Source: Mugil cephalus
Lineage: Eukaryota; Chordata; Actinopteri; Mugiliformes; Mugilidae
Length of the DNA: 64,000 nt
Direction: 5' to 3'
NCBI RefSeq assembly: GCF_022458985.1
Contig: NC_061770.1
Location: forward strand, 35,693,599-35,757,598
Positions 29,885-62,090 of the stretch are shown here, in pieces. The first letter of the stretch is position 1, and every line of letters begins with the position of its first letter. The position numbers and the translations under genes are program-made. A model generated the notes under the pieces. The model saw nothing but the letters and a program-made list of their open reading frames with translations. It did no database searches and was not told the origin of the DNA.

Positions 29885-29890
29885 AATAAA
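29885..29890 (+). terminator. polyadenylation signal of TRIM copy 1
   Basis: AATAAA about 675 bp after the stop codon, conserved in place in copies 2 (33587-33592) and 3 (37266-37271). Confidence 0.5.
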
Positions 29891-31209: not shown

Positions 31210-31237
31210 CACTCAGTCGTCGACACTGAGAGGAAAA

Positions 31238-34075: not shown

Positions 34076-34940
34076 CCAAACAAGTAAGTAGGCTCTAACT
34101 GTTTGTATTGACTGTCGATTATTTACCTGACTGATGGTAGGTCATTCATTCAGATCAGGAAATCAGATCAGATCAAACGTTTTCACATTTGCCCCATTAA
34201 ATGTTCAATGTTAACGAGGAAAATCTCTTCCTGGCTCATGGTTGTTCAGCAGCAGTTAATAAATGTCAGGATAATAAGAGCAGTTTAGGTCCTTTCCACC
34301 AGCTTCTCCATCCATATTTGTTTGGATCAATCACAGAAGTAAAGTAGCTGCTGTGTATTTGTAGTAACACACACAGATTATTAGCTGCTGCACTAAAAAG
34401 AAGGAAACAAAGATTTCAACATGAAACCTCCACAGTTGATGTTTGAGTCATTAAATACGTGTTAATGTGTTGGTTTTCATATCTGTGTATCTGAATCAAC
34501 AGTTGACTGACCAATAGAATTCTAATGACTAAAATAAAAGCTGCTTATAACTGATCTGTTTAGGAGACTGAATGAATCAGCATTAAAAGCTCATCCAGTA
34601 GAATCAGTGTGCAACTGTAACATGTCTGTGGCGTCTATGACTCTGAATGATGTGGATTTTATTCTGATTTGTTTTGTCGTCTGCTCCTCTTCCCGGAATG
34701 AGTCAAAGGATGATAACTCCTCCCTCTTCCTGGAGCAGCTCCACTCATATTTCCTCATGTTTCCTTGTTCCCTCCCCTTTAGATCTCTACATTGAAGATG
34801 GGTCTAACCAGCATGTGGTGAAGAGTGAGAGCTGATTGGCTCCATTCACTGTAGAGTCACATGTTGTTCAGATCAGAGCTCAGACTAGAATCACTTCTAG
34901 CAAACAGAAACTCACTCAGTCATCGACACTGGCAGGAGAA

Positions 34941-42814: not shown

Positions 42815-43085
42815 CTTGTGTCCATTGATGCAGTTGATGAAATTAGTGATATTCTCTCGCTTGGCCGCTAGAGGTCACTAAATACTACAAAAGACAAAGG
42901 TTTCCTTTTTCTTTCATATGTTTACACCTTCCATCTTTGTTTCATAATTGTTTAGAGTTATAATCTATTTAGAAAATACAGTTTTTCATAATTTGAAAAA
43001 TAGTCTTTCAGAATATGGCAGAAGTGTGTTAATTACCTCCCAATGTCCCACAGAGACGTTTCTAAACAGTTTTTGACTGTGGTAT
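42815..43085. repeat. segmental duplicate of 46960-47215
   Basis: Shared gtgtccattgatgc.gtt.atgaaatta, cttggccgctagag, acaaaagacaaag, ctttcatatgtttacacctt, gtgt.aattacctcccaatgtcccaca. Lies downstream (3') of helical secreted gene 1; the other copy lies between genes 1 and 2. Confidence 0.7.
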
Positions 43086-44128
43086 GCTATACCAAAGTGG
43101 TGTTCATGTAGTATCATATTCATATCATACGGCACAAAGACGAATCATGCTATTATTTTTACCTTTATTTTAAAAACAGCAGTTAATGTATGTTTCAGAG
43201 AAATAAAGAGATATAATAACAAATCATTAACATCAACAAAAGTCACATATATACACAAAGTCACCACATAATAAACCGTAGCAAAACAGCCATTTCAGAT
43301 CCACAGACAGGTAAACAGATCCGTTAGGTTGTGTCCCCTCACACACACCTACACACGTATCGCAAATTACGCATTACTCCATCATCCCATTATAATTCAA
43401 ACAATATCTAAATTAGGTAATCAGTTCATTAAAAAAAATTAGACCCTTTTGAAGATCTCTGGTTAACTGAGTTTTCTGCTTAAACCACTCCTGGTTGAAT
43501 TACCTAATTTTGTCTTTTCCCTCCTGAGAAATGATGAAATCCTCCAGTTGACGTGCTCCCAAACCTTTTATCTCCAATTCCTGCTTAAGAGGTAAACTCT
43601 TAACTGTCACTCTAACCACTTTGTGAACTCGATTCATCGTGCAATGATTGAATGAAACATGATTTAGCTATGTTAGATGAGCTAGCTGATCTGTGCAGTC
43701 CCGGCCCTTGCTTCAAATCACCCAATGAGATACCTCTGGGGCCACAGGTGTGGACCAAATAAATTCAGTGTGAAATTAGTATTGATATGTGCACATATGT
43801 AATCATGGTAATGATTATAATGTAGTTCCCAACAGACCTGTTTTCATTTAGATATTTTTCTGTTGTCATGTAATGGAACAACTAAAATCCTGACTTTAGA
43901 ACTGCAATGCCATCTGACAATATTGACATAGGGTCGCAGACTATCACTGAGCAAAGATATTAAATGTGTTAAACCAATACAAAAAGTAAAAACCCTAATA
44001 GCGTAAAGTTTTACACAAAGTGCCAAAAAATAGTGTGTCAGAAACAGAGAGGAAACCATGATCTCAGGGTCATTTCATAAAATCTAAAGTAGCATAAAAT
44101 CATACAGCCATAAAGACGGAAACTAAAG
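43086..44128. other. 3' flank of helical secreted gene 1
   Basis: AT-rich. The segment aataaagagatataataacaaa (43201-43223) recurs at 51168-51190 downstream of gene 2, so the 3' flanks were duplicated with the genes. No gene here. Confidence 0.4.
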
Positions 44129-44884
44129 TTATAATTCCACATATTTTTGTGCTATTTGCTTTTGCTTTTGTAGTTGAGTTTCGTTCTCCTTCAGATCTGC
44201 GGCCATGGCGTGAATCGTCCTGTCTGTCTCAGCTTTCATGATGTCGCAGAAACGCTTCACCATGTTTGGCACTTTTACCAGTGGTGGAAATTCATCTGAT
44301 GCTTCCTTCACTATTTCCACAATAGTGGCAAGCTGCTTTTTTCTTTCATCGTGTTCTCTTGACGCATCTGCCACTCTCTTCTCGTACGCTACCTGAGAGA
44401 TAAGTAAAAACATTTCATCACACATCATAGGCTTGCATGAGTTGTACTTCTTCCTTTGCAGTGGATTCATCACAAAGAATAATCTGATGTATATTTTTAC
44501 CATGTAGACTCAGCCATCATGTGAGCTACTGAATCTGAAATTTATGAATGATATGTGGTTCAACTGACTGACCCACCTTCATTTTGTTTACGGCTTCTGT
44601 TGTTTTCTGAATATTTATCACGAGAGCTTTCTTAAGCTTCTCAAGAACATCGTGTACCTGTAAATGAAGGATACTAAAACTGTTAATAGGCCCACGATGG
44701 CTTGTAATAGCCGCAATTATATGTGCACACAAAAATGGCAGTATTTTACATCATAAACGAAAGGATAAGTAAATTAATTTACAAGTTTCTCCTTGTCAAT
44801 CTCTGAACTTGCGACGTGAACCAGATACAGAGACAAGATGAGGAGGAGGCCTTTGGAGGTTCTGGACCTACCCAGTCCTGCCAT
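44129..44884 (-). CDS. secreted helical protein, tandem family member 1 (unknown function)
   Basis: Coding exons 44884-44783, 44657-44577 and 44392-44129, all phase 0, give 148 residues. Exon 1 is a leader (MAGLGRSRTSKG then LLLILSLYLVHVASS), the next is a 27-residue helical segment (EKLKKALVINIQKTTEAV), and the last is 87 residues with REHDERKKQLATIVEIVKEA, FPPLVKVPNMVKRF and a Gln/Lys-rich C-terminal helix. No known domain recognised. A noncoding exon ends at 45014. It carries a short upstream ORF (starting MAAVLPF) whose TGA overlaps the main ATG (TGATG), which may limit translation. TATAAAA lies at 45094-45087 and an ISRE-like site at 45148-45139. The mature protein is about 120 residues, mostly helix. 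Confidence 0.72.
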
Positions 44885-45138
44885 CACAGCTGCAGCTAAA
44901 ACACTCTGAACTTGACAAATTAAAAAAGCATTACGGTAAATGACAGAGTTTACGATATAATATTTAACAGTCTTCGCTACGATGCTCATATTATTCAGTG
45001 TCAATGATTTTACCTTCTGGGTGAAAGGAAGGACAGCAGCCATGCAGGCGGTGAAGGAAAATGTGAAAAGATAACCCATGAAAAATGTTTTTATACACTC
45101 TTACTGTCACGTGGCAGATCACCTGTGGAAAGCTGTTC

Positions 45139-45148
45139 TTTCACTTTC
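45139..45148 (-). promoter_or_regulatory. ISRE-like element of gene 1
   Basis: GAAAGTGAAA on the minus strand fits GAAANNGAAA (IRF binding). It sits about 45 bp upstream of the TATA box at 45087-45094, and a cagatcacctgtgg E-box-like motif lies between them. Confidence 0.65.
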
Positions 45149-45649
45149 ATTGACATGGAAGTTTATTATACTTTTACGGGAACATGGCAACACTTGTAGG
45201 TGTACAACAGAGAACACCTTATCAGTAGCTTCATCAAGAACCGGCAAGATCTGGGACAGCAACAGTATGATAGACAATTCAAATAAACCGGGCACCATAA
45301 ACAGTTGGGACTTTGGACTGTGACATAAATTTTGTTGTTTTCTGTTTACATTTTCAGGTTAGGAGGAAAGGTGCAGGAACATTTATTTTACAGGTACTTT
45401 TTTTCATGTTTAATCTGTGCAGGTAATGCTGTTCTGTCAGTCTTCCTGGTCTTTATGAATTGTTTGCCACTCGTGATAAAGTTCTGGCAGGCAGGGAAGT
45501 CAAACAAAAGGTATTTAATAATTAACAAAATGCGCTGCGCGAGGCAGGTAAATCCAAAATCCAAAAATCAAAAGAAATCATCAACATGGCATGAAAACAT
45601 GGAACAATTGTTGTGTCATGTCTTCACTGCCCAGAGATCAGCTGTCGTG

Positions 45650-45840
45650 GGAACATGGAACATGGCATGAAGACATTAACTGACGCGACAAGGAACAAGG
45701 GGAAGGCAGGGCTACATATACACAAGATGGCTCAGCGCTGCCAAGACACAGGTGAAACAGATCAGGGAAATCACAGCAGGTGAAACCAATGAAACATGAG
45801 TCACAAAATAAAAGACAGACAAACCATGACACTCGTGCAC
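45650..45840 (-). repeat. LTR-like teleost repeat
   Basis: Contains cacaggtgaaacagatcaggg, aacatgagtcacaaaataaaa and agacaaaccatgacac; the style resembles fish LTR retrotransposon termini. No pair seen; fossil, class uncertain. Confidence 0.3.
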
Positions 45841-45844
45841 AACG

Positions 45845-46620
45845 GGGTAGTTCCCTTGCCGCAGAGGTCGTCTTCTGCAGAAAGGGGCAATAATGCCAGT
45901 CCCCAGCAGCGAGGCGCGCCCCTGGTTTTATTCAGGCTACTTCTTGGTTACAAAAACAGACAGCAGTCTCCATCCTATCTTGAACCTGAAAGGATTCAAC
46001 AGCTTCCCCTTTCGCATGCTTCGGTTGTCAAGTCTTCTGTCGTCAATATGGAATCAGGACTGGTTCACTAGAGTGGACGTGCATTCTGGGGAATACTGCG
46101 TAATGCAGTTACAGCTGCACTTACTCTGTCCAGTTCGGTCCCTGAGGGCATACATCATGTACAGCCTCAGTTAGGGTTACAGACCAGCTCTTCGTCTGCT
46201 TTGGGAGTGCCAGGAAAAGCCATGCCCTGCCCAAACAGCACTTGGCCCGTTGGGTTGCCCAGACCATGACCCTGGCATTCTGCCCCAAGGCTTTATTTTC
46301 TTCAGTAAAGGACTTTTCTTCAGAGTGAACGACTGTCCTGAGTGGTTTTTGCCTCATGGGTGGTTGCAAAAGGTAACCGTGGTTCTATGAATTGAAGTCA
46401 ACACGCCAGCTTGCATTGTCAGTCAGTAAGCTGGTTAGAAAAGAGACAGGTGATCACGTGTATAAGTAGGCTCCGATTGCACATGAGGTCAGAGGTGTTA
46501 ATTTGCCATTTGTCTGCTGAAACAGCTCACTCTCGGAGAGGGTGACCCATACGGTGGCATGTTCAGCTTCATTCATAGAACCAGGGTTACCTTCTGTAAC
46601 TATCCATTTCACTTCCATGT
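45845..46620 (+). mobile_element. DIRS-like retroelement fossil
   Basis: A frame near 45900-46090 reads ARPWFYSGYFLVTKTDS, LHPILNLKGFNSFPF and DWFTRVDVHSGEY. This fits the reverse transcriptase start of DIRS-type elements ('FYS.YFLVPKKDGG.RPILDL'). Later text includes inverted copies of a gaaccagggttac/ggtaaccgtggttc motif (46375-46400, 46578-46600), consistent with element ends. Broken, old, several breaks. Confidence 0.5.
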
Positions 46621-46959
46621 GTTTTAGGGTTTATTGATCGACAAGGAAAATTTCTTGATCGCAGCTTTGTTAAACAAAATAACACTTGAGAACCAAAAAT
46701 AGATGAAAATAGTTAGTTAAAAAACGGATTAATAAAATAATAATTAAATAGAAATGAAATGTAAGTAAATTTTTAATTTAAGTTTACAGTCTTCATGCTT
46801 GAATCTGACCTGCATTTAACATTCAGGTATACAGAATTCAGACTTCACATTTGGCAGCTTTACAGGAACTTATCAGCAGCATTTAAAAATGTGAAACGAA
46901 AACTGGGGCGCTTGTGCCTCTTTCCGTAGTGTTTTCATTTTAGATTTTGCGTGCTGTGT

Positions 46960-47215
46960 GTCCATTGATGCTGTTCATGAAATTAGTGATGTTCTCTCAC
47001 TTGGCCGCTAGAGTTCAGTAAAATGTAAGATGTAAATACCACAAAAGACAAAGCTGGCCTTCATTTTTCTTTCATATGTTTACACCTTTCATCTTTGTCT
47101 TATAATTGTTTACAGTGAAAATCTATGTAGATGATACTTCATATTGCAAAATTCACAATATGACAGAAGTGTATTAATTATCTCCCGATGTCCCACAAAG
47201 TTTCTAAACAATTCT
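46960..47215. repeat. segmental duplicate of 42815-43085
   Basis: See 42815-43085. It abuts the ISXO2-type transposase piece. Confidence 0.7.
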
Positions 47216-47236
47216 CAACATTATAGAATAGAACTG

Positions 47237-47494
47237 TCACACTTCAGTAGGGTTCAAAGGTTGTTTCACATTGTAACATGCTCTTATGTCTTTAAATAAG
47301 CGTCCAAGAATGCCTTTCCTATGCTCCTTTTCAAGCCATTGGTTCCATGCTATGAACCGTAAGTTAATTTTCAAGGCCCTCTCTGTCAGGTTTCCCTTGT
47401 ATCTGTAGATGTCTCTTTGGTGATTCACCTGATAGTGAATGTATCCTTCACGTGACAATAAGTTGTAGGCACGCCAGGAATCACTAATCACCTC
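47237..47494 (-). pseudogene. ISXO2/Merlin-type DDE transposase fragment
   Basis: The minus-strand frame reads ISDSWRAYNLLSREGY then IHYQVNH, matching the second-Asp block of ISXO2-like (IS1595/Merlin) transposases ('ISD.W.AY..L...GY.H..VNH'). It continues with IYRYKGNLTERALKINL, FIAWNQWLEKEHRKG and LGRLFKDIRACYNV. The usual TGAHTQ..E segment is missing between VNH and IYRY, so it is internally deleted. Upstream blocks were not found. It could be a dead Merlin element or the last exon of a domesticated gene. Confidence 0.55.
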
Positions 47495-47547
47495 ACTTAA
47501 AAATATATATAATAAAGATATTATACTTTTGAAAATGATCCAATATT

Positions 47548-48320
47548 ACGTATTAGTGAGTGGCAAAAGTATGTGAACCTCTGGGATTAGCGGTTAATTT
47601 GAAAGTGAAATTAAAGTCAGGTCAATCAATCAATCAATCAATGAGAATGAGTGGGCACCCTGTTTCATTTAAAGAACAGGGATCCATCAAAGTCTGCTCT
47701 ACACAACATGTTTGTGGAAGTGTATCATGGCACGAACAAAGGAGATTTCTGAAGGCCTCAGAAAAAGAGTTGTTGATGCTCATCAGGCTGGAAAAGGGTA
47801 CAACAACATCTCTAAAGAGTTTGGACTCCACCAATCCACAGTCAGACAGATTATGGACAAATGGAGGAAATTCAAGACCATTGTTACCCTTCCCAGGGGT
47901 GGTCGACCAACAAAGATCACTCCAAGAGCGAGGCGCGTAGTAGTTGGCGAGATCACAAAGGACCCCAGGTTAACTTTTAAGTAACTGAAGGCATCTCTCA
48001 CATTGGCTAATGTTAATGTTCACGAGTCAGGCGTCAGAAGACCACTGAACAACAATGGTGTGCATGGCAGGGTTGCATGAGAACATTTCTGTTCGTCTGC
48101 AGTTTGCTAAAGATCATGTGGACAAGCCAGAAGGCTATTGGAAGAATGTTTTGTGGATGGATGAGACCAAAATAGAACTTTTTAGTTTAACAGAAAAGCG
48201 TTATGTTTGGAGAAAGGAAAACACTGCATTCCAGCATAAGAACCTTATCCCATCTGTGAAACATGGTGGGGGCAGTATCATTTTTGGGCCTGTTTTGCTG
48301 CATCTGTTTTCTCAATGTGC
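47548..48320 (+). mobile_element. Tc1-like transposon, 3'-truncated
   Basis: The left end has gtggcaaaagtatgtgaacc, typical of a fish Tc1 family. Frames show the helix-turn-helix (MARTKEISEGLRKRVVDAHQ, then STVRQIMDKWR and GGRPTKITPRARR) and the first catalytic Asp block (VLWMDETKIELF), then SVKHGGGSIIF. At least two frame breaks occur. The C-terminal third and right end are absent. Confidence 0.85.
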
Positions 48321-48406
48321 GAATATTTGAGTAGGCCTAATATGACATTGACAAGAACATTAATTTAGTGCTCTGTGCGGCCTTTCTTCTTCTTCTTCTT
48401 CTTCTG

Positions 48407-48437
<31 letters not shown>

Positions 48438-50220
48438 GCAGGATGCACCGGCTTTTGTAGTGCATAACTCTCACCTGCGCAGGCTTTTTTTTTTTTAAAT
48501 TTCCGCCTGATCTCTAGGAACATACCATTCTGTACTTGGTGTTGGGGGGTGCAAAAACGGATAGTGTTGGATCATTAGATCTTGGTAATGCCAAGTACAA
48601 ATTTTAAACATTATATTTTATTTAAGTTAATGATACACGTTTACTGTTATTAGACGACTATTTTTTCCAACTGTTTAATTCCATTTAATGGACTATTCCA
48701 TTCATTGGCTCACCCCATAGAGGCCGGTAAAAAAAGAAGGTGCAGGTGGGAAGTGGCAAAACATCACGTTTCCTACTATCACAACAAGAAGAAGCATTTA
48801 GTCAAGGTAGAATTGAATAATTATTTCATCATTTTTGTTACTCTGTTTAAGGATCCAACAAAAGGAGGCTCATGGATTCCTCAGAAAAGAGGAATAAGAA
48901 GGAGAGAAAGAATAAGAGCAAGGAAAACCCTGCAAAATTTGGAAAAAGAGGTAGCTTTCATCATTATAAAAAGGGTAACGTCTTAGGCTTGTAGTTATCA
49001 CAGTTCTTGGTATTGCCAAGGGCAGGGTATCGTAAGCAACTAAGATGCAAACTGATTTTCAACATTGACCTTCAAAGTAAAGTCAGAAATGTTTTAAACC
49101 CACAGTTTTTGAATGCAAATTGTTATTTTTTTACAAACTTCAAATGACTTTTTCTGTTTTATATTTTTTTCCAATTTCCTGTGTTGATCTGGGAACATCT
49201 GTAATGATATGTGCTTCAGTATGGAGTCGGTCACGGTGGGTGGCTAATGGCTGTTCATATGAAGCCTTCAGATTATTGTACATGGTCCAGGTGACAAAAA
49301 TGGACCTAGTTTAGTCTATGGAACATTTTCATCTCAGTGTTACAATCCTTTATATTCATTAAGCATAGGGTTAGTTCAGGCAGCCCACAACTTCACGCTC
49401 CACATATCAGCTGTCGGCAGCAAGCAAGCCTAGCCCCATGGATTTGTGAAGGGCAGGATGGGGGGTCTTCCTGCCTCAAGGCTTTACATGTGAGCACGTG
49501 GAAGAACAGGGAGTCCCCAGAACAGAACCAAGTAAATAAAGATCATTTTTGACCAAGTGGTCCTGACTGAAGGGTAGTTTCTACTCTAGTTTAGGGTATG
49601 GGTTACATAATAAATCGGTAAAACTTTTACGTGATCGATAAAATTCTTAACGATCAATGATCGATCACAGATTAATCATGCCCAACCCTAATAGACACTT
49701 TCTTTTTTTTTTTTTTATCAATCAGAGCCACAGAAATGACATTTCGTTCATGCATTCACTGCAAGGTGTTTATTTTTTAATAAAATAAAATCTTTCTACA
49801 GCATAGGAGGCTTTAACAGTGGAATAGAATGTTTCTTGTTTTTTTCATCAACGTTTCACTTCTGGTGGCAAAATTATGTAGCACTTAGAAAATATGTGTT
49901 TTCATACATCTTCACGTAGCATCGCTGAAATTTGTCAATGCTTTGCAAGCTACTTGCAGTATCCACATGCTTTGCGTGCGGGGCTGTTGCCGTCGCTGTT
50001 GTGGTACGCAGCGCAACAGCTAATGGATTGGCTACATTTTTCAAATACCCGATACAGCTATTTTGTCCATATTTGGATCATGTGATCACTATGTGATCCA
50101 AATATCAGATTGATGCATCCCCACCATCTCAGTGTAATACAATCCACCTAGTCATCTCACTGCAGAACCCTGAAAGTGTACTTTGTTTTTATTTTGAGTC
50201 TTGAATATGCATGATACGTG
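48321..50220. other. repeat-rich gene-free stretch
   Basis: Contains (ttc)n at about 48385-48405, long poly-T near 48410-48434, a possible repeat at 49380-49620, and an unassigned frame at 48705-48986 rich in Arg/Lys. No gene supported. Confidence 0.35.
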
Positions 50221-50233
50221 ACGATACTTGCAG

Positions 50234-50452
50234 AATTCAAAAAACACAGAAGTGTTTGGCATCGACCGGAACACCACCGCTGTCACTGCCATAATTGCGG
50301 AAATTAAAATTGCAGAGCCAGATAAAATGCCACCCTTTAACACTCTAGCAGGGTATTCGAAAAAGTGCAAAGCTGTACTCAAAGGAGACGAGGAGCTACA
50401 GGAAAAACTAAAGTCCATGAAGAAGACAGTTGACCCGCTGCCCATAAACTGA
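50234..50452 (+). CDS. possible terminal exon, unknown protein
   Basis: A plus-strand open segment of 72 codons plus stop follows a ttgcag acceptor at 50233. It reads NSKNTEVFGIDRNTTAV, EIKIAEPDKMPPFNTL and ends KTVDPLPIN. Composition is protein-like, but I do not recognise the family and found no upstream exon. Candidates are the last exon of an unseen gene or part of a transposon accessory gene. Confidence 0.3.
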   Translation, partial: NSKNTEVFGIDRNTTAVTAIIAEIKIAEPDKMPPFNTLAGYSKKCKAVLKGDEELQEKLKSMKKTVDPLPIN

Positions 50453-50459
50453 ACTTTTT

Positions 50460-51283
50460 GATGTAACTGCTTGGTAAGGAGACTTTGCAGCTGTTTGTTC
50501 TATTCCCTTGGAAATTAGTCATTAACCTGGTAACACTCAAGGAAATACATGTTAAAAGTAATGAACAATTGGTTTAATTACATGGTAAGAAACTGGTAAC
50601 ACCTTCATAATGCTGGTAGTAATTACCCATTAATGCAGAGTTGTTTTTTTAATAATAGTTGAGATATTTCAAGGCAGTGAGTTAGTATTTACTCTGTAGT
50701 CACCATCATTTTACCAGTGTTAGTTACCTTATGATTTCTTTCTTTTACCTTGTAATTACACAGTGAATACACTGTAATTAGGGGACAGTAAAAGAAAGTG
50801 TTACCAAGATGGGAGAACATACCAGAAGTGTGTTATGGGAATTTCACCTCGGACGTGGGCTGTGCTGCATGTGTCAACTCCGTTGCTGTGCTGTTTTGGC
50901 TTTAAAAAGGGGACTGTAAAAGAAAAGGTTTTCAGTTCCCACTTTTTTACCCCAGTGTCTGAGAGCCGTATCCTGTTTTTCTCATTCCGCTCCTGATTTC
51001 ACAATAATTAGTTACAGTTCTTTGACTATTATTCATCAGTAAATCAAAATGACTTCGAATCATTAAAATCATTCTCCAAAAATCTATTTATTCAAATTCT
51101 GATTACACTCTCAGTACCGTACTTTAGGCTGCTGGTTAACCGAGATCTCAACTCTCTTGACAAGGAATAAAGAGATATAATAACAAAGTATTAACATAAA
51201 CACTGGTCAGATATCAAACAATGTGCCAAAAAAATAGCTTAAGTAGCAAAACATCACAGCCTTAAAGAAGGAAACCAAAACTG
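50460..51283. other. 3' flank of helical gene 2
   Basis: No gene; includes the duplicated aataaagagatataataacaaa segment at 51168-51190. Confidence 0.35.
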
Positions 51284-51934
51284 TTACAGTTCCTCTAGCT
51301 CTTCCTCTTTTTCTTTTACTAATCTCCTTAGTTCTTGTAGTTGCATTTCCCTCTCCTTCAGATTCGCAGCCGTGGCTCGATTCATCTTGTCCGCCTCAGC
51401 CTTCGTGTTGTCAAAGAAACGCTTCAGCATGTTTGGCACTTTTACCAGTGGCGGAAAATCATCTGATGCTTCCTTCACTATTTCCATGACAGTGTCAAGC
51501 TGCTTCTTTCCTTCTTTGTGTTCTCTCGCCGCATTTGCCACCGACCTCTCGTGCGCTGCCTGGTAGAGATAAGTAAAAACGTTTGATCAGACTTCTGCAG
51601 TGGAGTCATCACAAAGAATAATCTGCTGTACATTTTTTTCTCGTGTAGACTCTGACTGACCCACCTTCATTTTGTTTAGGTCCTCTGTCAGTTTCTGAAG
51701 TTTTTTCTTGAGCATTTTCTGAAATATCCCAGAAAGATCACATGAGCATGACGTCCGTTCTATCACTACATTGACAGCTAAAAATGAAGGGAACTAGCCC
51801 CGAGTGTTTTCCATCATAAATTCATTTACAAGCGTGTCCTTGTCTATCCGGGAACTTGCGACGTGAAGCAGACACAGCAGAGACAAGATGAGGAGGATTC
51901 CTCTGGAGGTTCTGGACCTACCCAGTCCTGCCAT
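51284..51934 (-). CDS. secreted helical protein, tandem family member 2 (unknown function)
   Basis: Exons 51934-51830, 51718-51665 and 51559-51284 (35 + 18 + 91 codons, all phase 0) give 144 residues. It is the closest relative of gene 1: leader MAGLGRSRTSRGILLIL, last exon with AAREHKEGKKQLDTVMEIVKEA and FPPLVKVPNMLKRFF, ending in a Lys/Glu-rich helix (VKEKEEELEEL). The middle exon is 18 codons against 27 in gene 1. A noncoding exon ends at 52047, TATAAAG is at 52129-52123 and an ISRE-like site at 52182-52173. The Glu-rich C-terminus is strongly charged and likely coiled coil. No stop or frame break. Confidence 0.75.
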
Positions 51935-52172
51935 CACGGCTGTAGCTAAAACACTTTAACACACATTAAATAAAAAGCATTACGGTTAATGAGGAGTTCC
52001 ACAGAGTGTACGATATAATATTATTGTTCCGTGTTAATGATCTTACCTTGTGGGTGAAGGGGAAGGACAGCAGCAGTGCAGGCGGTGAACGAAAATGAGA
52101 AAAGACAACACACGAAAAAATGCTTTATACACGCCCACTGTCACGTCGCAGATCACCTGTGGGAAGTTGTCC

Positions 52173-52182
52173 TTTCACTTTC
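52173..52182 (-). promoter_or_regulatory. ISRE-like element of gene 2
   Basis: GAAAGTGAAA, identical to the gene 1 site and at the same distance from TATA. The gcagatcacctgtgg motif lies between, as in gene 1. Confidence 0.65.
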
Positions 52183-52912
52183 AGTACCGTGAAAGTTTAT
52201 TATTCTTTTAGGGGGACGTGATAGTACCTGTCAATGTACAACACAGAACACCTTATCAGTAGCTCCACCAGGAACTCTGACCGGTTTTTCCAGTTGCTGT
52301 CGGCAACAATATGTTTAACCCATTGTAACCACGTACAAGACAATGGTCGTTAAAATTCACTGTTAAATACTGACAATTCAAATAAACTAAATAAAAAGGG
52401 AACAGTGAACAGTTGGGACTCTGTTTACCAAAGCGTGTTCAGGTTAGGAGGAGGAAAGGTGCAGGAACACTGATTTCCTCAAAAGTGTCCTGAACGAATG
52501 AACCTGATGAATCAAAACTTCATGGAGTTTTGTAATGTTAATAAATATTCCCCTAAGAGCAAGCTATAATCCTTATCATTAATACTGAAACTGGACTAGT
52601 TTGGCACTAACGTTTTAAGAATTATCACTGATAGCAATCCAGTCCAGTCACATAGTATCCAAAATCCTGAGGAAGGTACGTCGCTTAATTCATTCCTCAC
52701 CTCATCTGACTTTGTGCTGTCATTCATTAACCATCATCGTCAGGGTGGGGACCTGCCCTACATACCTCAACAAACTATGTTTAATACAGAAGAGATATCT
52801 TAGATTAATATTCATCCCCTGCTTTAAATATATATATATATATAAATTTACTACCTGTTGACAAAGTGAATGTCTATGCAACATGTTTATTTATACAGAA
52901 GTTCTTTTAGAG
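52183..52912. other. upstream region of helical gene 2
   Basis: The first 150 bp resemble the far promoter of genes 1 and 4 (acaacacagaacaccttatcagtag; aatatgtttaacccatt). No gene. Confidence 0.4.
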
Positions 52913-53214
52913 CAGCGGCCTTCAACATTTTTCAGGTCAAGGATCCCGAACTGATTAGAGAGATTAACCCATCATATATTAAACTCGGCCTTGTGCTTTT
53001 TTTTTTTTTTTTTTTTTTTTGTCATAAATATACATATTATCATTATTCTGCATTCAGTATTAAGCTATCTAACATATGTCTTACTAAAATATGTTGGATT
53101 CATAATGTGCATTTAAAGAAATTGTGAAATTAAAAATAATATATATATATATAGATAGATAAACTGATCAAAAAAAAGATTTTGCCTCCGCGGACCCCCT
53201 GTTGAAGACCTATG
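52913..53214. mobile_element. hAT-type MITE
   Basis: Ends CAGCGGCCTTCAAC and, inverted, CATAGGTCTTCAAC; possible degraded 8-bp flanks ttttagag/gtgtaaag. Internally AT-rich with poly-T. Same family as 9957-10235. Confidence 0.7.
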
Positions 53215-54352
53215 GTGTAAAGACTTTAATATTGTTATTATTATTATAGATAAGGGGCTTTTTTTCAACTATACAGATCCAAAATTCCACTTTTTTCACA
53301 TAGTCTGTATTAGTTTTCTTTGTTAAAATGAAGTTATTGGTAATTTCATGATATAGACAAATTATTTGCATCTTTCAAGTTTGAATCCACCAGTCGTGGG
53401 TTCAACTAGACACATTCACGAACTGAGAGTACGTGCATCTAATAGTGGTTTTAGCAGTGGTCAAGTCCCGCATACTGTATGTTTATACACAGACACACAC
53501 TTTGTCCAAAAGCCTTAACGGTCGATACACAGTAGGACTGGGGATATCGGCTGGTCTGGTCAATCAAAGGCAGTACATGTTCATCAAATGCAAATAAAAG
53601 CTCCCATAAAAAAGTTTTATTACCAGAGTTTGTCAGTGAGAAATTAAAGTTTAAACAAGTCCAGTGCGACAATCCGACAGTCTTACCTCAACAGAGGCCG
53701 AGGTGTAACATGTACGAAAGAAAGTCTGGGTATTTCAGAGGAAATAAATAAAGTAGCACATAATAATACTTCTGACATGAGAATTTATTTGATTGATGTG
53801 CATCGTCTGAATGGTTGAATGGTGAATGACGTTGTTTTGCAGCGAGCAAGGTTCATTAATCCTTTGACTTCCACACTAAGAAATTAAATACTGTTCATTT
53901 ATAATCTATATTAACAGACTGAGAATTTATTGAAGATGTATGATGTATATGTTCAAGCTATGGTCAAAAAGCCACAGCTTAGATATAATGTGTTCACACA
54001 TGGGAAAATCTTATAAAATGAATGACTATCAATGGTTAGAAATTAAGCATTTTACTGTCTACTTCTACAACTACTAAAACAAAAACAAAACAAAAAAAAA
54101 TAGATAAACCGTGTGGTTACAATACCAAGAAAAGAAGAAAAGCTACAACTGCAACATTTACAGCTTCTGTAATTATTATTATCTTTAATCATTTAATTTA
54201 GAGACACATAATACAGGAACATTTCAGTTAAAATCTTATTTTTTACTGATAACAGAAGTTAAATGAGTTAAAGTGTCGATCAGGGCCATGTGATCCACGT
54301 AAGAGAGAGGAGCTTTACAGACACAGTGGATGTGAAACCAGAGACAAACACG
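53215..54352. other. 3' flank of helical gene 3
   Basis: AT-rich with no supported gene. Confidence 0.35.
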
Positions 54353-55857
54353 TCACAGTTCAGTGCGATGCTCCCCCAGAGACGTGATCCGCTCCTTCAG
54401 TGACCTCAGTTGCTCTTCATTGTCCGTGATCAGTGCAGCTTCGTCCTCGTACCTTTTAGTGAAGAAAGCCTTGCTGTCCTCCATAAATTCCTTCAGGTCC
54501 TTATATATTTCCGGGAATGATGTATAATGAGGCAGCAGTTTCATCACCGTTTTTTCCAAACCGTCCATCATGTTTATGATATCATCCATGACCTCTGCTA
54601 TGAGGACTTTGTCTAGCTTGTGGTTGGCCTGGAGGGGAAATAAAAAACAAATTTATATATATATACACACACACACTGAAAAAGGTGACTTTTTGGTGAA
54701 ACTCTATTAGAGCAACTGTCATAATTTTTAAGGTTCAGTAAGAACTAGAGTTTCTTAAGTACAATTTTCATTTTATCAACGTAATATATGAATATGAAGA
54801 GTAAGTTTTACTTAGGTTTCCTCATACAATTTAAATGTTTAATGGTTGTATGTACACAAACCTAGAAATGCTACTTTGCTCTGAAAGTGTGGCGCGTGTG
54901 CACAGTTGCACGTTCGCGCGTTGAATGCGGGATCACAGAGCAACGTGTAGCACGAAAGACAGTCACTGTTCTGTTTTAAATTTGTGATAATATATAAGCA
55001 CCAGCTTGCGAATGCAAAGAGACTTCGCTGTAAGTCTTCTTTCTTTTCTTTTTTTTTTTGACATGAAGCTAGTTAGCACGGCTAGCAGCGTGGCTGCGCC
55101 GCGCAGCGTGAAGCCCACAGCAACTTCGTGACGTGCCGACCGATACTTTCGATACCAAATGTGTCCGTTTTAGTTGTCGAAAATAAATTGTCTATATTTT
55201 CACCAGTCTGCACTGATTTGAGTTAACAACTTTTTTTTTGTCATAGACAGTTATTTCAAATCTACTAAATTACTTCATAACAGCAAATACTACAGATAAA
55301 ATTCACTTAAAATCTTGAGTAAAATGATGTCCCCGCCTATAAAAACCAAGTAGACTTTACTTAATTTGTTTAAATAAATATAACTTAAAACTTAGATGTA
55401 ATTAAGTAAATGTTACTTAATATCTTCACAACTGTTACGTTTCATCGTAAGTAAAATTAACTTGATACCTGCAAGTGAGTGAATTTTACTTAAATTTTAC
55501 TTAAATACTTACAATATACATTTTTTAAGTAAATCTTATGGGTTATTTTTTTCAGTGTATATATGTAACACATATGCTCACACAGACTCACTCACCTTCT
55601 TTCTTAATACTTCATCCTCGAGGGTCTGAAGGTTGCGATTCAGCTCCTCCTGAAACGTGATAGAAAACATCAAAAAAAACAAAAAAAAAACAACAACAAC
55701 TCCTGACCGTAACTGTTTAACATTTGCGAATGTAGATGTAGGAGCAACGTACCAGAGTGTGGGGGTCAGTGACGGTCAGTGAAGTTGCGACGTGAAGCAG
55801 ACTGAGCAGAGAGAGGACGAGGACGAGGCCTCTGGTGGTGGGTAGGACGGCCGTCAT
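54353..55857 (-). CDS. secreted helical protein, tandem family member 3 (unknown function)
   Basis: Exons 55857-55753, 55649-55596 and 54628-54353 (35 + 18 + 91 codons) give 144 residues, exactly the exon lengths of gene 2 though the sequence is much diverged. Leader MTAVLPTTRGLVLVLSLLSLLHVATS; middle exon EELNRNLQTLEDEVLRKK; last exon starts ANHKLDKVL and holds MDDIINMMDGLEKTVMKLL, HYTSFPEIYKDLKEF and a C-terminal helix (EEQLRSLKERITSL). A noncoding exon ends at 55946. A TATA-like TGTAAAA is at 56009-56003. The large intron 2 (about 970 bp) contains AT-rich repeats. Frame intact. Confidence 0.75.
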
Positions 55858-56048
55858 CACAGCTGTAACAGCATCAGACGTTACGGTTAAAGAAGAATCC
55901 CACCTTTGCAGCGTTTAGTATCTGTCTCCATGTTAGTGATCTTACCTGCTGGGTGAGCGAGGTGAGCGTGACGCGCAGGTGGTGGACGACAAACGGCGAA
56001 TGTTTTACACACTCCCGTTGTCACGGTGCGCATGCTACAGGCTTCACA

Positions 56049-56059
56049 CTTTCACTTCC
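56049..56059 (-). promoter_or_regulatory. ISRE/IRF-like element of gene 3
   Basis: GGAAGTGAAAG on the minus strand, a one-base variant of the gene 1/2 site, about 40 bp upstream of the TATA-like box. Confidence 0.5.
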
Positions 56060-56498
56060 ACTTTACGGGAACTCGGCAACACCAGTCAGCGCAGGGACAT
56101 AAAAAAAAAAAAAAAAACAGACTGCATTTCAGAGCGACAGTGTGCGGAACAACAACTCCTCCTCCTCCTCCTGTCTTTCCAGTTACAGACCTCAGCGTCT
56201 CACCGTCAAAGTCACTTCAGCACATTTCTTAAATTCCCTCCCTGTGAGGTTTAGACGTGTCGTGTTTTCACAACATGCTCAGGTCAAAATTAGCCCACGC
56301 CTGCATGCCCATATCAACACCATCAGAGTTTATCTCCTTTAAAGTGTCTATGTGGGTCACACCACAGAGTGTTATCATTAACACCTGTTATAGTTAAAAC
56401 GCAACACTTCTCAACACTAGTGTGTAGTGTTAGATATCAGCTCACTCACAGTGTCAGTTGTTAACTACTACAAGTGTTTACTCCATTTTATACTCTAT

Positions 56499-56501
<3 letters not shown>

Positions 56502-56530
<29 letters not shown>
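56502..56530. repeat. (TA)n microsatellite
   Basis: Short TA dinucleotide run. Confidence 0.9.
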
Positions 56531-56531
<1 letters not shown>

Positions 56532-56589
56532 TCAAACTTTCCACATACTTTGTCCCCGAACATCAGGGGAAAATGAGAGAGTCCTATAC

Positions 56590-57050
56590 ACTCACTTGCC
56601 ACTTTATTAGCTACACCTGTACCTGAACGCACAACACGTCCAACCTTGAAGAAGATGGGCTACAGCAGCAGAAGACCACACCGGGGGGCCACTCCTGTCA
56701 GCTAAGAACAGGAAACTGAGACTACAGTTCACACAGGCTCAATGCAACTGAGAACCCATCTTCTGAGCTCATATCATGTCAAACTGGTTTCTAGAACATG
56801 ACAAGTTCCCTGTACTCCAATGGCCTCCACAGTCACCAGATCTCAATCCAATAGACCATCACCTTTGGGACGTGGTGGAACGGGAGATTCTCATCATAGA
56901 TGTGCAGCCGACAAATCTGCAGCAACTGTGTGATGCTGTCATGTCAATATGGACCAAAATCTCTGAGGAATGTTTCCTTGTTGAAAGTAGGACACCAAGA
57001 TTTAAGGCAGGTGTGGTTCTCTATTGTTCTCTCCAATCACCATCATGTCT
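56590..57050 (+). mobile_element. Tc1-like transposon, internally deleted
   Basis: Begins cactcacttgccactttattag; then gggctacagcagcagaagacc; then, after a large internal gap, the C-terminal transposase (WPPQSPDLNPID, LWDVVEREI, DVQPTNLQQLCDAVMSIWTKISEECF). The catalytic core between is missing and the right end is lost. A third distinct Tc1 family in this window. Confidence 0.8.
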
Positions 57051-57260
57051 TATACTGTAAAACATTCTGACACAGACAAAAGTCCACCATCGTTTCCCCC
57101 CCATGTTCTGCTCATTTCAGCTTCAGGACTGGATTCTCACCCAGCACTCCCTGCCTTGGGTTTATCATTATACTGATAAATGAATAAACCCAGTTAATCA
57201 ATTACTTTTACCTCTTGTCTGCACTTGGGCTCACCTGCCGTGAACTCGTTTGTGTGAACC

Positions 57261-57560
57261 CAGGGGCGTAGAATTGGGTGGGAACGCTAGGGACACACGT
57301 CCCTGCCATTATCCACTCATTACTGGGTCATCACTCAACCTTCTCCATAGTGTGGAGTTAATGATAACAATAATAATAATAATAATAAGTCCCGCCTCTG
57401 ACCTAAATATCACTCTCCGATTGGCTGTCCCAGTTTGCCGCTAACATGTGATTGGCCGTCCCCGCTGTCACTCCATCGACTTGAAACGCTACCAGCAACC
57501 TGCTGCTAGTTGCACAGCACAGGAGGCAGCAGTGCGTTTATCCGCAATCGAAAGTGTAAG
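57261..57560 (+). mobile_element. 5' end of a hAT-like DNA transposon (probable)
   Basis: Starts CAGGGGCGTAGAATTGGGTGG, a typical hAT terminal form, followed by a region with two gattggc CCAAT-type boxes and an (AAT)n run (about 57370-57387). No transposase and no right end were found. Confidence 0.45.
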
Positions 57561-58603
57561 TTGTCAACATGTGTTGGCCTTTGTTTTGCCTGGGTCACGT
57601 CAGGTTTGAATATCAGTGGCGTCATCTACATTTACATTTGAATTTGTTTTATGTTTGCATGTGTGCGTGTCCTTCATTTAAACGATGTCAAGATAAAGAA
57701 AACTCCACATAAGACTTCTTTTGGAGTCGAAGTGTAAGTTACTTAAAGCGTACATAACTGCATGGGCTCAACAATACAGATATTGAATAAAAGAAAATAT
57801 TTAATAATAAAAAAATATATAAAATACTTATTTCTTTCATGCATTTGCGTGGAAGATGTTTAAACGAGCATCTAGAATCCAAAGTTTTATTGTTTTTTCC
57901 TCACAGATTTGTTTTGGGGAAAAAAAAAATTATACGTAATAATCGTGTGAAAGTGAAAGACTTTTTTGCTCAGGCATTAACTGTACCACCAAACTCGATC
58001 ATCACTATCTGTTCATATGTCATGCATCCACACATTCTTGTCAGGAGACAAACAGTGGAGAGGTTTGGAGGAGAAGCTGATGGATAATTTTGGGTAATGA
58101 TGGACATGTTAGTCTCGAGGTTCATCGCTGAGACAAATGTTAGTGTGATGATGGTGTGAATAACAACCTGTGGACACGAAAGGTTCAAATGTTGCTTCAT
58201 TTATATCCTCAGGTTATTCTTCATAGCTTCCTCCTTGTCTTCCATTAGTCATATAATATACTTCTTGTACTCAGATATGAATGAAACATGTCAATTACTG
58301 ACTTCGTTTTTCTGACTATAATCTTTTGCTTGATCTGCTCTACATGATGTGAAATAATGTTTACAAATGCAAAAAATAGTGTGTCTTTAATCAATCTTTT
58401 AATGACGGTAAAACGCAGTTACAGAGCATAAATTCACACTGACGCAACTGTATTTTAATGTTACACGTGTATAGATACATGCCCTTCTATATAGTGTCAC
58501 TGAGAAACATTTCCACGTTATTTCACAGCGTAATGTGACAGATCAGCAGAGACACACATGGAAAACAGAGCAGTGCTGGCAATTTAATGAAACTCCTCAT
58601 TTC
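57561..58603. other. gene-free stretch
   Basis: AT-rich, with no supported exon; probably the 3' flank of helical gene 4. Confidence 0.35.
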
Positions 58604-60417
58604 TTACAGTTCCCTTAGGGACCTCAGGTATTCTGCATCAAAGGTCTTCATCTTCTTGCTGAGGTAAACCTTAACTTTCTTAAAAAAACGCTCAGCTACA
58701 TCCATCGTTTGTTGCACCTGTGGAGAGTCACCGACAAAAGACTTTGCGAATTGCAGCGTAGGTTCAATTTGCATTGAGACGATGTCCAGTTGTGACGAGC
58801 GTGATGACATTTCATCCTTGTCTTCTGCCTGATGGAGGGAAAATAAATCTTCAGTTTACTATTCATTAATACACAGGACAAGATGTTACAATCCCTTGTA
58901 CGATGATCTGAGGCAAAACTCATTTAACTGAAAAACAGACCAGCAGTTAGCTTCTAACTAGCCTAGCCTAGCCTAGCCAAGCCTAGCCAGCAGCAGTAGG
59001 TACTAGAGGTGATGGGACATGCGACTACACTTCATCCAACACCTCTCCCTTCTGCTAGGATTTCTTGAAGATGTTTCAACCCTCATCAAGTCAGCTTCTT
59101 CAGTTCTAAGAGACTGATGGAAACATCTGTGGCCCTGAAAATGGCGTGACTAGGGTTGAATTAACGACCTGCCAGGAATCTGTTTGGACTCAGTTCTCCC
59201 CAGTCCCCCAGTGATTGTTCCTGTAATGACCCGTCACGTTGGTGTTCACGTTATTATTGCCACGCTCTTTAGGACAAGCACGTTTGGAGTGGGAGTATGA
59301 AAACATGTAGATTATAGGGACCCTTGCATTTGAAGCTAAGATGCAGCTAAGCTAAGACCCCGGAAGAAGTTTCACAGATCTCACAAAATACCAGAGATAC
59401 AGCATAGACGACATTGCAAATGTCTTCCCTAACAAACCAAACATGACTTCAGACAAAACAGAAGGGCTAACGTAGAGGAAACAGGATGACAGGACCAGAC
59501 ATGGCTGAATGCAGGACCTCTGAGATAGGGAGCTCACTCAGCTACAAAATAATGTCTCAACCAGGAGACTGAGTTTTCACCCTAAGGCCAGAACACATTC
59601 ACAGCCACACAGTCTGCCATTAGGCAACAATAAGAACAAATAACCCACCTTCTTTTTTCTTGCATCTTTTGCTGCTTTCTGGAGCCTTTTTCTGAATATT
59701 TCCTGCAGAAATATCATCACGAGAATGAGAGTTGCTCTTGCATCCTTGCCTTTAAACATATACTATAAATGAAGGGAATTCTAACACAAGTGTGTTTTCA
59801 CTCCTTTACCAGCTGGTCCATGGTGTCGAGCGAACCTGCCAAGTCAAGTAATTCTGAGAGAGTTTCAGTCCGACGCTGGTTGTCTGCCTAATGGAGGAGA
59901 ATCAAACCTCATTAAATGTAGTAGTAGATCATGGTGCGTTTAACTACACTTCTTACACGCTGCAGTTCTCTTTGTCTGGGTATTTATAAAGATAAGTTGA
60001 TGGCAAATGCAGTTCTTTGTTCACACTTAAAAGAAAAAAAAAACACACGACACACTCTGTCACCCAACGTGCACACAAGCCAAATATGACACGATAACCA
60101 TCTGACCCACCTTCTCTCGTCTCAGTTCTTTTATTCCGTGCTTCATACTTTCCCTGAACATGTTCTGAAATTTAAAAAAAATGTGGAATGTGGATGTAAA
60201 TGTGGACATTAATGAGCGCACGGAGAATTGCAGCCTGTGTGTAAAAAATGTTTTACATAACAAGGTTAAATAAAAATGGATTTACAATTTGGCTCTCGTC
60301 CACCAGTGAACTTGCGACATAAACCAGACTCAGCAGAGAGAGGATGAGGAGGAGGCCTTTAGAGGTCCTGGCTGTAGCCAGTCCTCTGGTGGTGGGTGAG
60401 CCTGCTGCTGCCGTCAT
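58604..60417 (-). CDS. secreted helical protein, tandem family member 4, with duplicated exon module
   Basis: Five phase-0 coding exons: 60417-60286 (44 codons), 60164-60111 (18), 59887-59810 (26), 59702-59649 (18) and 58828-58604 (74), giving 180 residues. Leader MTAAAGSPTTRG then TARTSKGLLLIL and VYVASS. Two 18-codon exons (NMFRESMKHGIKELRREK; EIFRKRLQKAAKDARKKK) are each followed by an exon starting Ala-Asp or Ala-Glu, so the two-exon module of genes 2 and 3 occurs twice. The last exon includes DIVSMQIEPTLQFAK and VAERFFKKVKVYLSKKMK. A noncoding exon ends at 60566 and exon 2 starts at 60419. TATAAAA is at 60622-60616. Intact frame; unknown function. Confidence 0.7.
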
Positions 60418-60674
60418 AGCTGTGGAGGTTAAAACGGTCTTTGAACTTTACAACAAAACAACATTACAGCTGGTAAAGGGTTCGGCGTGAAGCACAAACA
60501 ACACATTTTGACAGTTGACGTGTAAAGTTTTGCAGTGTTTCTGTGTAAACTGCTTTGTATCTTACCTGCGTGGTGCGCGGGAGTCGAGCTGTGGGCAGGT
60601 GACACACGGCAAAGGTTTTATACCCTCCGGTTGTCGAGCTGCTCGAGTTACAGATCACGTGTGCGAGCCTTTCT

Positions 60675-60688
60675 TTTGCTTTCACTTC
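60675..60688 (-). promoter_or_regulatory. IRF-like element of gene 4
   Basis: GAAGTGAAAGCAAA on the minus strand, followed by more AAGAAA, lies about 53 bp upstream of TATA; a near rather than exact ISRE match. Confidence 0.5.
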
Positions 60689-60722
60689 AAAAAACATGAT
60701 TCCACTTTACAGGAACATGATA

Positions 60723-60726
<4 letters not shown>

Positions 60727-60758
<32 letters not shown>
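60727..60758. repeat. (AC)n microsatellite
   Basis: About 16 CA units in the upstream region of helical gene 4. Confidence 0.95.
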
Positions 60759-60760
<2 letters not shown>

Positions 60761-60899
60761 CAAAACGCACACACAGACAATAGTTCTCTACAAGGCAGGT
60801 CTATCAGGAACTCTCACTGGTCTTTCAAGTTTCAGACACATGATAATATGTTTAACCCATTAACCACCTAAAAGACAAAGGTCGCTGGAAGTCAATAGA

Positions 60900-62090
60900 C
60901 ACAATAAGAAGAGCTAGTCAGGAATTATGGGGGTGAACAGATCATTAATAATAACCAGCTCAACCTGTATGATCTCCTAATGAATGAATTATATCATAAA
61001 GCTAGTGATTTGGATGTTAAAAAAATAAAAATAAAAACATGACAAGAGAAAATGTGTATCTTTGTTTTAACAAGTACAACACATGCAATGTTGGGAAACC
61101 AGTGTGATTCATTTCAAAACATTCATTTAAAAAGAACAGATTCAAATAAATAAATGACAAATCATAATTATGACAATTAAAGAAACTTACATTTTATACC
61201 TTTGCTCTGTTCAAGGAAAATGTACTGCTCACTATCAACACCAGGGGTCAGTATTGTATTATTTTTACATTTTAATCTGACTAATTCGGCTCTTGGCTGT
61301 TTAACGCCAGCTATTAGTTCTTGTTATTTGTCAGTGTGGTTTTTGGGTACAGAGTTTGACTTTAATGTGTATGGGAACACAGTGCAGTTTGTATATGACA
61401 GAGGTTTTTATTTCATCGGCCCGAGACGTCAATACAAGACGGTAAATAGTTGTGGCAGGGCTTTAATAAAACTTGCTGGACACGCTGCGTTGTTTCTTGT
61501 GTTCTGAGTTGTCCCCTGCTTGTCCGTGCTTGTTTTGTTTTAGGGGAAACAAGATTATGTTACCTGTTACCACGCGTCATAAAGCAGCGACATTATTGTA
61601 ATGAAGGAGACCGATACAGGCGGAGAGTCTTCATTCTCTAACAATCAATCAGGAGGAATTGGCAGGCCCGTCGTGCTGCTTCACCGGGGGTCCTGATTTC
61701 ACAGCCAGCCTCCGTCACTACTGCGTCAGCACTGATGAGCTCAGCCTTACCGGTAGGGGAGGGAGGGAGAGAGATGGTGAGAGAGAAAGAAAGAGAGAGG
61801 AGAGACGGGGTGTTGCCCCTCTGAGACACACTCACGCATCGCAGAGTTAAACAGCGGCAGGGCGAGGACACAGCATCCCTCCATCCCTTGTCTCCCTGAG
61901 ATAGCAAAGCAGATTATTTTTTATTGGTATCGTTATTATTTTTAATCACTGGAGCGGTAAAGGAGCCTTTATATCGTTCGACTTAATCGAGATATCGCGG
62001 TAAGATCGTGCGTATCGGCATCGGGAGACTTGGCCAAAGACACCTCGACGTTGAAGCAGAGGGACCGTTTCAGCACCTTGGACAGCGACC
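60900..62090 (+). other. intergenic region and syt4 5' UTR
   Basis: The left part is AT-rich. From about 61660 the sequence becomes GC-richer with a purine-rich GA tract (61765-61805), as expected for a promoter and 5' UTR of the following gene. The transcription start is not visible. Confidence 0.45.

What the first reader, a model, noticed from the sequence alone, without database searches (positions are those of the whole stretch)
44129..60690. Tandem family of four small secreted helical proteins with interferon-type promoters
Four minus-strand genes share a noncoding first exon, a similar leader ([LI]LSL.....V.[ST]S), all-phase-0 exons, an 18-codon exon (27 in gene 1) and an Ala-starting helical last exon. 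No domain known to me fits. Genes 3 and 4 are so diverged that only exon architecture links them to 1 and 2, the sign of fast evolution. Together with ISRE-like promoter sites this suggests an uncharacterised, interferon-inducible, fish-specific secreted family. The exon and frame facts are seen directly; immune function is inferred.
Basis: partly seen in the sequence, partly recalled or inferred. Interest (0 to 1): 0.88.

Follow-up and report, generated by a model that had tools for sequence, protein, structure and literature searches.

The report
Expanded ISRE-driven helical hairpin gene family
Four neighbouring fish genes belong to a family of about thirty on one chromosome that make small, fast-changing helical proteins for the secretory pathway from promoters carrying an interferon-type switch; they match no family searched here, and some end in a signal that would keep them inside the cell's endoplasmic reticulum.

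Summary
All four gene models (44129-60690, minus strand) splice as described: GT/AG borders, phase-0 coding exons, alignable leaders. No significant match was found in Pfam, NCBIfam (three of four proteins) or PDB.

Four is an undercount: two more clusters on the same chromosome give 32 gene models (4+16+12).

The interferon-type promoter claim gets stronger. A sense GAAANNGAAA lies 160-420 bases before the ATG in 19 of 32 genes, antisense in 0 of 32, 0.95 expected. Induction is untested.

Last exons of two genes fold, in prediction, as a helical hairpin with a long second helix. In three B-type genes codons 1-65 of the last exon diverge 18-27%, its end, leader and introns 2-8%, but the 5' flank 17-22%, so segment exchange is as likely as selection.

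One revision: 18 of 29 complete proteins end in -EL and 8 of 29 in [KRH]xEL, including RTEL and RSEL, published ER-retrieval signals. Some members may be ER-resident, not secreted.

Fish specificity could not be tested.

The parts
60680..60688 (-). gene A ISRE-like site GAAGTGAAA (followed by G)
60566..60622 (-). gene A TATA box (60622) to donor of noncoding exon 1 (exon ends 60566; TSS not known)
60286..60417 (-). gene A leader exon, 44 codons
60111..60164 (-). gene A 18-codon exon, first copy
59810..59887 (-). gene A 26-codon A-starting exon (looks like a truncated copy of the last-exon module)
   Evidence: similarity seen by eye to last exons
59649..59702 (-). gene A 18-codon exon, second copy
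58604..58828 (-). gene A last exon with stop, ends LREL
56049..56059 (-). gene B ISRE-like site GGAAGTGAAAG
55946..56008 (-). gene B TATA-like site (56008) to donor of noncoding exon 1
55753..55857 (-). gene B leader exon, 35 codons
55596..55649 (-). gene B 18-codon exon
54353..54628 (-). gene B last exon, predicted helical hairpin (helices 2-35 and 39-90), ends RTEL (ER-retrieval type)
52172..52182 (-). gene C ISRE-like site GAAAGTGAAAG
52047..52129 (-). gene C TATA box (52129) to donor of noncoding exon 1
51830..51934 (-). gene C leader exon, 35 codons
51665..51718 (-). gene C 18-codon exon
51284..51559 (-). gene C last exon, predicted helical hairpin (helices 2-32 and 36-90), ends LEEL
45138..45148 (-). 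gene D ISRE-like site GAAAGTGAAAG
45014..45095 (-). gene D TATA box (45095) to donor of noncoding exon 1
44783..44884 (-). gene D leader exon, 34 codons
44577..44657 (-). gene D 27-codon exon
44129..44392 (-). gene D last exon, ends YVEL

Best explanation
A birth-and-death multigene family (about 30 genes in three clusters on one chromosome) whose promoters carry an IRF/ISRE element upstream of a TATA box, so the genes are probably switched on by interferon or IRF signalling. Each gene makes a small helical protein that enters the secretory pathway through a leader that looks cleavable. The mature protein is a two-helix hairpin (the head) followed by a long C-terminal helix (the tail). In the B-type genes the head is hypervariable and the tail is nearly constant, as if the head contacts something that keeps changing, such as pathogen proteins, while the tail keeps dimerisation and localisation. 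In many members the tail ends in -EL, and in some in a KDEL-receptor type signal (RTEL, RSEL, HSEL, HTEL, HAEL), so at least these are probably held in the ER or early secretory pathway. Shown by sequence: gene models, family size, promoter element, place of the variability in the B type, C-terminal motif. Predicted: the hairpin. Inferred: induction, localisation, target, defence function.
For: Gene models with clean splice sites in all four window genes and 32 models overall, 29 complete. Genome-wide leader search: 29 of 29 hits in three clusters of C1. Sense ISRE in 19 of 32 (strict) or 24 of 32 (loose), antisense 0 or 1 of 32, 0.95 or 2.75 expected. In the 32-promoter alignment the GAAAGTGAAA block is about 0.87-0.88 identical against 0.68 overall, beside the TATA box and the first-exon donor. 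Last exon against introns plus 3' flank: 19.9% v 4.1%, 17.4% v 8.4%, 16.7% v 8.5%, 17.0% v 10.8% in 4 of 8 pairs tested, Fisher p 1e-12 to 0.014. B trio: 27% nucleotide divergence in codons 23-66, 3.6% in codons 67-91. AlphaFold hairpins with pLDDT 89 and 84 for the last exons of C and B, which are 22% identical. C-terminal [KRH]xEL 8 of 29 v 0.03 expected from internal positions, xxEL 18 of 29 v 0.44. RTEL and RSEL act as ER signals elsewhere.
Against: No RNA evidence of any kind. Paralogues share promoters and C-termini by descent, so the counts are not independent. 8 of 32 promoters lack the site. In 4 of the 8 pairs tested the last exon is not faster than its neighbours. In the B trio the 5' flank (-450 to -130) diverges 17-22%, as much as the last exon, and silent changes are raised in codons 1-65 too (pS 0.22-0.31, pN 0.21-0.25): homogenised gene bodies around an older segment explain this as well as positive selection. 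The variable-head, constant-tail pattern was seen in the B type only: in X39330/Y40820 divergence is even (0.14-0.20 by quarter) and in W44/X39317 the last of the three stretches compared is the most variable (0.20 v 0.09). Three of the four window genes end in YVEL, LEEL and LREL, which lack the basic residue of the ER signals seen in print; other members end in HTKL, HSKL, LEEI or DEEL.
Confidence: 0.57

Rival explanations
1. Truly secreted helical effectors or cytokine-like ligands; the -EL ends are only the end of a Glu/Leu-rich coil.
For: Leader with basic n-region, hydrophobic core and an A-x-S type cleavage site (by eye); 11 of 29 complete proteins do not end in -EL and 21 of 29 lack [KRH]xEL; all introns phase 0, as in helical cytokine genes (recalled).
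Against: No interferon or interleukin family among the Pfam hits; 26 of 29 complete proteins have 0 or 1 cysteine in the mature part; the internal -EL rate of 1.5% makes 18 of 29 terminal -EL unlikely by composition alone.
Confidence: 0.3
2. Apolipoprotein-like, lipid- or membrane-binding amphipathic helices induced in infection.
For: Noncoding first exon, then a leader exon, a short exon and a long helical last exon resemble apolipoprotein genes (recalled); amphipathic period of 95-115 degrees along the last exon.
Against: No apolipoprotein or ApoL family among the Pfam hits; phase-0 introns just after the leader differ from apolipoprotein introns (recalled); hydrophobic content of only 32-42%.
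Confidence: 0.12
3. A fast-evolving family with a non-immune role, for example reproductive or mucus proteins, with the GAAANNGAAA element serving another factor.
For: Fast evolution and tandem expansion occur in such families too (recalled); expression is unknown.
Against: Strong positional and strand bias of the ISRE-type element; the window also holds TRIM genes with PRY/SPRY domains and an Ig exon.
Confidence: 0.1
4. A decaying cluster evolving neutrally.
For: Pooled pN 0.200 and pS 0.214 in last exons; three orphan leaders and two models without a middle exon.
Against: Leaders, splice sites and promoter elements are conserved, and in the B type the C-terminal helix; 29 of 32 models are complete, although a simulation gives 6.5-20% chance that both frames of a pair survive under neutrality (four cases).
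Confidence: 0.05

Closest known systems
KDEL-receptor clients with non-classical tails (human MYDGF, RTEL; Drosophila MANF, RSEL)
   Same: Small leader-bearing proteins that end in RTEL or RSEL, a shown ER signal (passages seen in PMC6901522 and PMC4790953).
   Different: MYDGF is mostly beta sheet (passage), unlike the predicted helical hairpin here; no sequence comparison was made; only 8 of 29 members carry the basic form.
finTRIM and other lineage-expanded fish ISG families
   Same: Expansion in fish and fast change; TRIM genes with PRY/SPRY lie about 8-17 kb from gene D in this window; finTRIM expansion is described in PMC13030082 (passages).
   Different: No RING, B-box or SPRY match; leader-bearing; about a quarter of the size.
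Type I interferons and IL-10-type helical cytokines
   Same: Small, helical, leader, all-phase-0 introns (the cytokine side recalled).
   Different: No Pfam match, few cysteines, noncoding first exon, short 18-codon exon, predicted hairpin rather than a bundle.
Exchangeable apolipoproteins
   Same: Noncoding exon 1, leader exon, short exon, long amphipathic helical last exon (apolipoprotein side recalled).
   Different: No Pfam match; intron positions and phases differ (recalled).

Membership tests
Interferon-stimulated genes | ISRE or IRF element in the proximal promoter | tested here: met
   19 of 32 strict sense, 0 of 32 antisense, 0.95 expected; in the window strict in C and D, looser in B and A
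Interferon-stimulated genes | Induction of the transcript by interferon or virus | not testable with these tools
   no RNA data on hand
KDEL-receptor retained ER proteins | C-terminal [KRH]x[DE]L | tested here: inconclusive
   8 of 29 complete proteins, of the window genes only B (RTEL); A, C and D end in LREL, LEEL, YVEL
KDEL-receptor retained ER proteins | N-terminal signal peptide | tested here: inconclusive
   leader read by eye; no signal-peptide predictor at hand
Type I interferon / IL-10-type cytokines | Match to the family profile | tested here: not met
   no such family among Pfam hits at E<=5 for the four window proteins or E<=0.01 for 12 chosen members
Type I interferon / IL-10-type cytokines | Conserved cysteine pairs | tested here: not met
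   mature parts of the 29 complete models have 0 (20), 1 (6), 2 (2) or 3 (1) cysteines
Exchangeable apolipoproteins / ApoL | Match to the family profile | tested here: not met
   no such family listed
finTRIM / TRIM | RING, B-box and SPRY domains | tested here: not met
   none listed for the four window proteins; TRIM coiled-coil E 0.0076 in 1 of 12 members, read as generic coil
Any family with a solved structure | Significant sequence or fold match | tested here: not met
   best PDB profile hits E 0.0095 and 0.0087, read as coiled-coil proteins; Foldseek with the C model 0 matches at E<=0.001 in PDB and BFVD

The most novel reading that the evidence does not exclude
A previously undescribed class of interferon-induced, ER-resident defence proteins: a hypervariable helical-hairpin head on a constant coiled tail with a KDEL-receptor signal, diversified by selection and by segment exchange among about 30 clustered genes, which binds pathogen glycoproteins while they fold in the ER lumen.
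Probability: 0.18. Interest if true: 0.85.

Novelty: new variant of a known kind. Interest (0 to 1): 0.62.

Why it matters
Short, multi-exon genes without known domains are easily left unnamed in fish genomes (general knowledge). A promoter element that stays fixed while one exon segment diversifies points to a defence gene family that domain searches miss. If the ER-retrieval tails are functional, the family would place a fast-evolving arm of the interferon response inside the ER lumen, where viral envelope proteins fold, and that can be tested in a cell line.

Tried and rejected
Pfam, NCBIfam and PDB searches gave only weak, scattered hits, those in Pfam and NCBIfam below their curated cut-offs, many to coiled coils (one search prints cut-offs for its first member only). 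A viral origin or capture: one scan of viral contigs with a leader-derived pattern, 47 pattern matches, none confirmed; viral copies without the leader would be missed. A fifth, plus-strand member at 50228-50452: an open frame with an AG before it, but no real profile match (2.6-3.4 bits) and no partner exon among the lengths tried; rejected. Members elsewhere in the genome: the only off-chromosome hit was C3, E 0.197, 31% in a 395-aa frame; treated as noise. The leader search missed 6 of the 35 leaders known, so distant copies elsewhere are not excluded. 5' UTR folding at gene A: z 0.38, nothing. Positive selection as sole cause of the B-trio variability: not accepted, because silent sites and the 5' flank diverge as much. 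Leader identity without last-exon identity as proof of exon exchange: 7 of 406 pairs, all involving one gene (Y40820), so weak. Literature: nine searches answered; some searches sought a description of such a family (one search found no paper at all) and none was recognised in the listings; most subscription journals and all fish proteomes were out of reach.

Rows dropped: 3 of 35 leaders had no model; of 32 models, 3 (X39338, X39342, Y40770: incomplete) were left out of the 29-protein counts and the tree, but kept in the promoter counts. Middle exons of X39353, X39372 and Y40770 are uncertain. Of 13 pairs profiled, 8 were tested, one of them against introns only; the pairs share genes. The 12-member alignments A5 and A6 are a chosen subset of the 29.
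Full report
What was checked. I read the minus strand of 43000-62000 and spliced the four genes. All coding exons have AG and GT borders, are multiples of three and are joined in phase 0. Lengths are 148, 144, 144 and 180 residues for D, C, B and A. Gene A has five coding exons, because the short-exon and A-starting-exon pair is present twice. A noncoding first exon with an AG|GTAA donor lies 90-150 bases before each ATG.

The family is larger than four. A search of the own genome with the last exon of C gave 11 hits, 11 of 11 on C1. I fetched 39.298-39.378 and 40.770-40.840 Mb of C1 and searched them and the window with iterated profiles: 35 leader exons and 35 last-exon matches. From these, 32 gene models were built: 4 in the window, 16 at 39.317-39.373 Mb and 12 at 40.770-40.825 Mb. 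Three leaders had no model, two models lack a middle exon and one is cut by the end of the fetched stretch. A leader search of the whole genome gave 29 matches, 29 of 29 in the three clusters; it missed 6 of the 35 leaders already known, so it is not exhaustive. Searching with B's last exon gave 8 matches, 7 on C1 and one chance-level hit on C3. In a tree of 29 last exons the three clusters interleave and the window genes fall into the A, B and C/D subfamilies, so the types appear older than the split of the clusters; the tree warns of long branches, W58 (gene A) among them.

Promoters. In 32 upstream regions (-420 to -160 from the ATG) strict GAAANNGAAA is found in 19 on the sense strand and in 0 antisense; control segments of the same regions away from the promoters give 3.0% per strand, or 0.95 expected. 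GAAAGTGAAAG is found in 12 of 32 and in none of 4000 sampled control segments (one copy outside promoters exists, at 57949). With looser forms the count is 24 of 32. Of these 24, 15 have a TATA-like box 51-77 bases downstream of the site and 16 have an E-box-like word (CACGTN, CACATG or CACGC) 20-35 bases downstream; no control was run for these two. In the alignment of 32 promoters the site is among the most conserved blocks (about 0.87-0.88 against a mean of 0.68), next to the first-exon donor and the TATA box. Eight promoters lack it, and paralogues are not independent. The element supports interferon or IRF control; it does not show it.

Evolution. Thirteen pairs were profiled region by region and eight of them tested. 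In four (Y40793/Y40824, X39325/Y40793, X39330/Y40820, W44/X39317) the last exon diverges faster than introns plus 3' flank, p 1e-12 to 0.014; the first two share a gene. In the other four (X39350/X39363, Y40783/Y40818, Y40785/Y40805, X39347/X39366) it does not (p 0.2 to 1). In the B trio the excess sits in codons 1-65: 18% nucleotide divergence at codons 1-22, 27% at 23-66, 3.6% at 67-91, with leader 3-4%, introns 2-8% and 3' flank 6-10%, but 5' flank 17-22%. Silent changes are raised in codons 1-65 as well. So the pattern may come from homogenised gene bodies around an old segment, diversifying selection, or both. Outside the B type the head-tail contrast was not seen in the two pairs looked at: X39330/Y40820 is even along the exon and W44/X39317 is most variable in the last stretch compared. 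Pooled over 21 overlapping pairs, leader pN 0.074 and pS 0.101, last exon pN 0.200 and pS 0.214.

Protein. No family matched: Pfam at E up to 5 for the four window proteins, every hit below its cut-off; NCBIfam for three of the four; Pfam for 12 chosen members; PDB sequences with two profiles; viral contigs with one leader-derived pattern. Hydrophobicity along the last exon has a helical period. AlphaFold models of the last exons of C and B, each from the four window sequences, are helix-turn-helix hairpins with a long second helix, pLDDT 89.2 and 84.1, pTM 0.60 and 0.57. They had the same four input sequences, so they are not independent. Foldseek with the C model found nothing at E<=0.001 in PDB or BFVD. 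Placed on the B model, the hypervariable codons of the B trio cover helix 1, the turn and the first half of helix 2; the constant part is the end of helix 2.

C-terminus. Of 29 complete proteins, 18 end in -EL, including all four window genes; internal tetrapeptides of the same proteins show this in 53 of 3492 (0.44 expected at the end). [KRH]xEL ends 8 of 29 against 4 of 3492 internally (0.03 expected): RTEL in B and X39330, RSEL in X39325 and Y40824, HSEL, HTEL and two HAEL. All four B-type genes carry it despite their variable heads. Relatives end in HTKL (2), HSKL, DEEL (3), LEEI (3) and other words. RTEL is the ER signal of human MYDGF and binds KDEL receptors (passages of PMC6901522), and RSEL is that of Drosophila MANF (passages of PMC4790953). 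A, C and D end in LREL, LEEL and YVEL, whose activity is unknown.

Judgement. Fish specificity is untested because no other vertebrate genome was at hand. That no paper describes the family rests only, and on their listings.

Noticed in passing
27543-36614 (+): Three TRIM genes with coiled-coil and PRY/SPRY domains, the two at 31-36 kb with RING and B-box (the RING frame of the first was not scanned); an ISRE-like GGAAACAGAAACTC lies at 31197-31210, near the start of the second one. By recall they look like finTRIM.
   Followed up: partly
17428-18641 (-): DNA/RNA non-specific endonuclease domain (PF01223) at 17428-18033, with a leader-like frame upstream that has no Pfam match of its own.
   Followed up: partly
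24131-24496 and 15603-16010 (-): Immunoglobulin-type exon (I-set above its cut-off) and a similar frame nearby (by eye), on the far side of the TRIM genes.
   Followed up: partly
57949 (+): A perfect GAAAGTGAAAG on the opposite strand between genes A and B, with no gene model attached.
   Followed up: no
62000-64000 (+): Start of a conserved gene whose peptide resembles synaptotagmin-4 (recalled, not searched); it lies beyond gene A.
   Followed up: no
47700-48330: Repeat with a Tc1-like transposase frame (name recalled; no Pfam match for 48055-48330); part of window:48000-49000 has at least 42 matches in the genome, itself included.
   Followed up: no
G000:C1:40795579-40798127 (-): Long open frames that look by eye like a retroelement inside the third cluster.
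   Followed up: no
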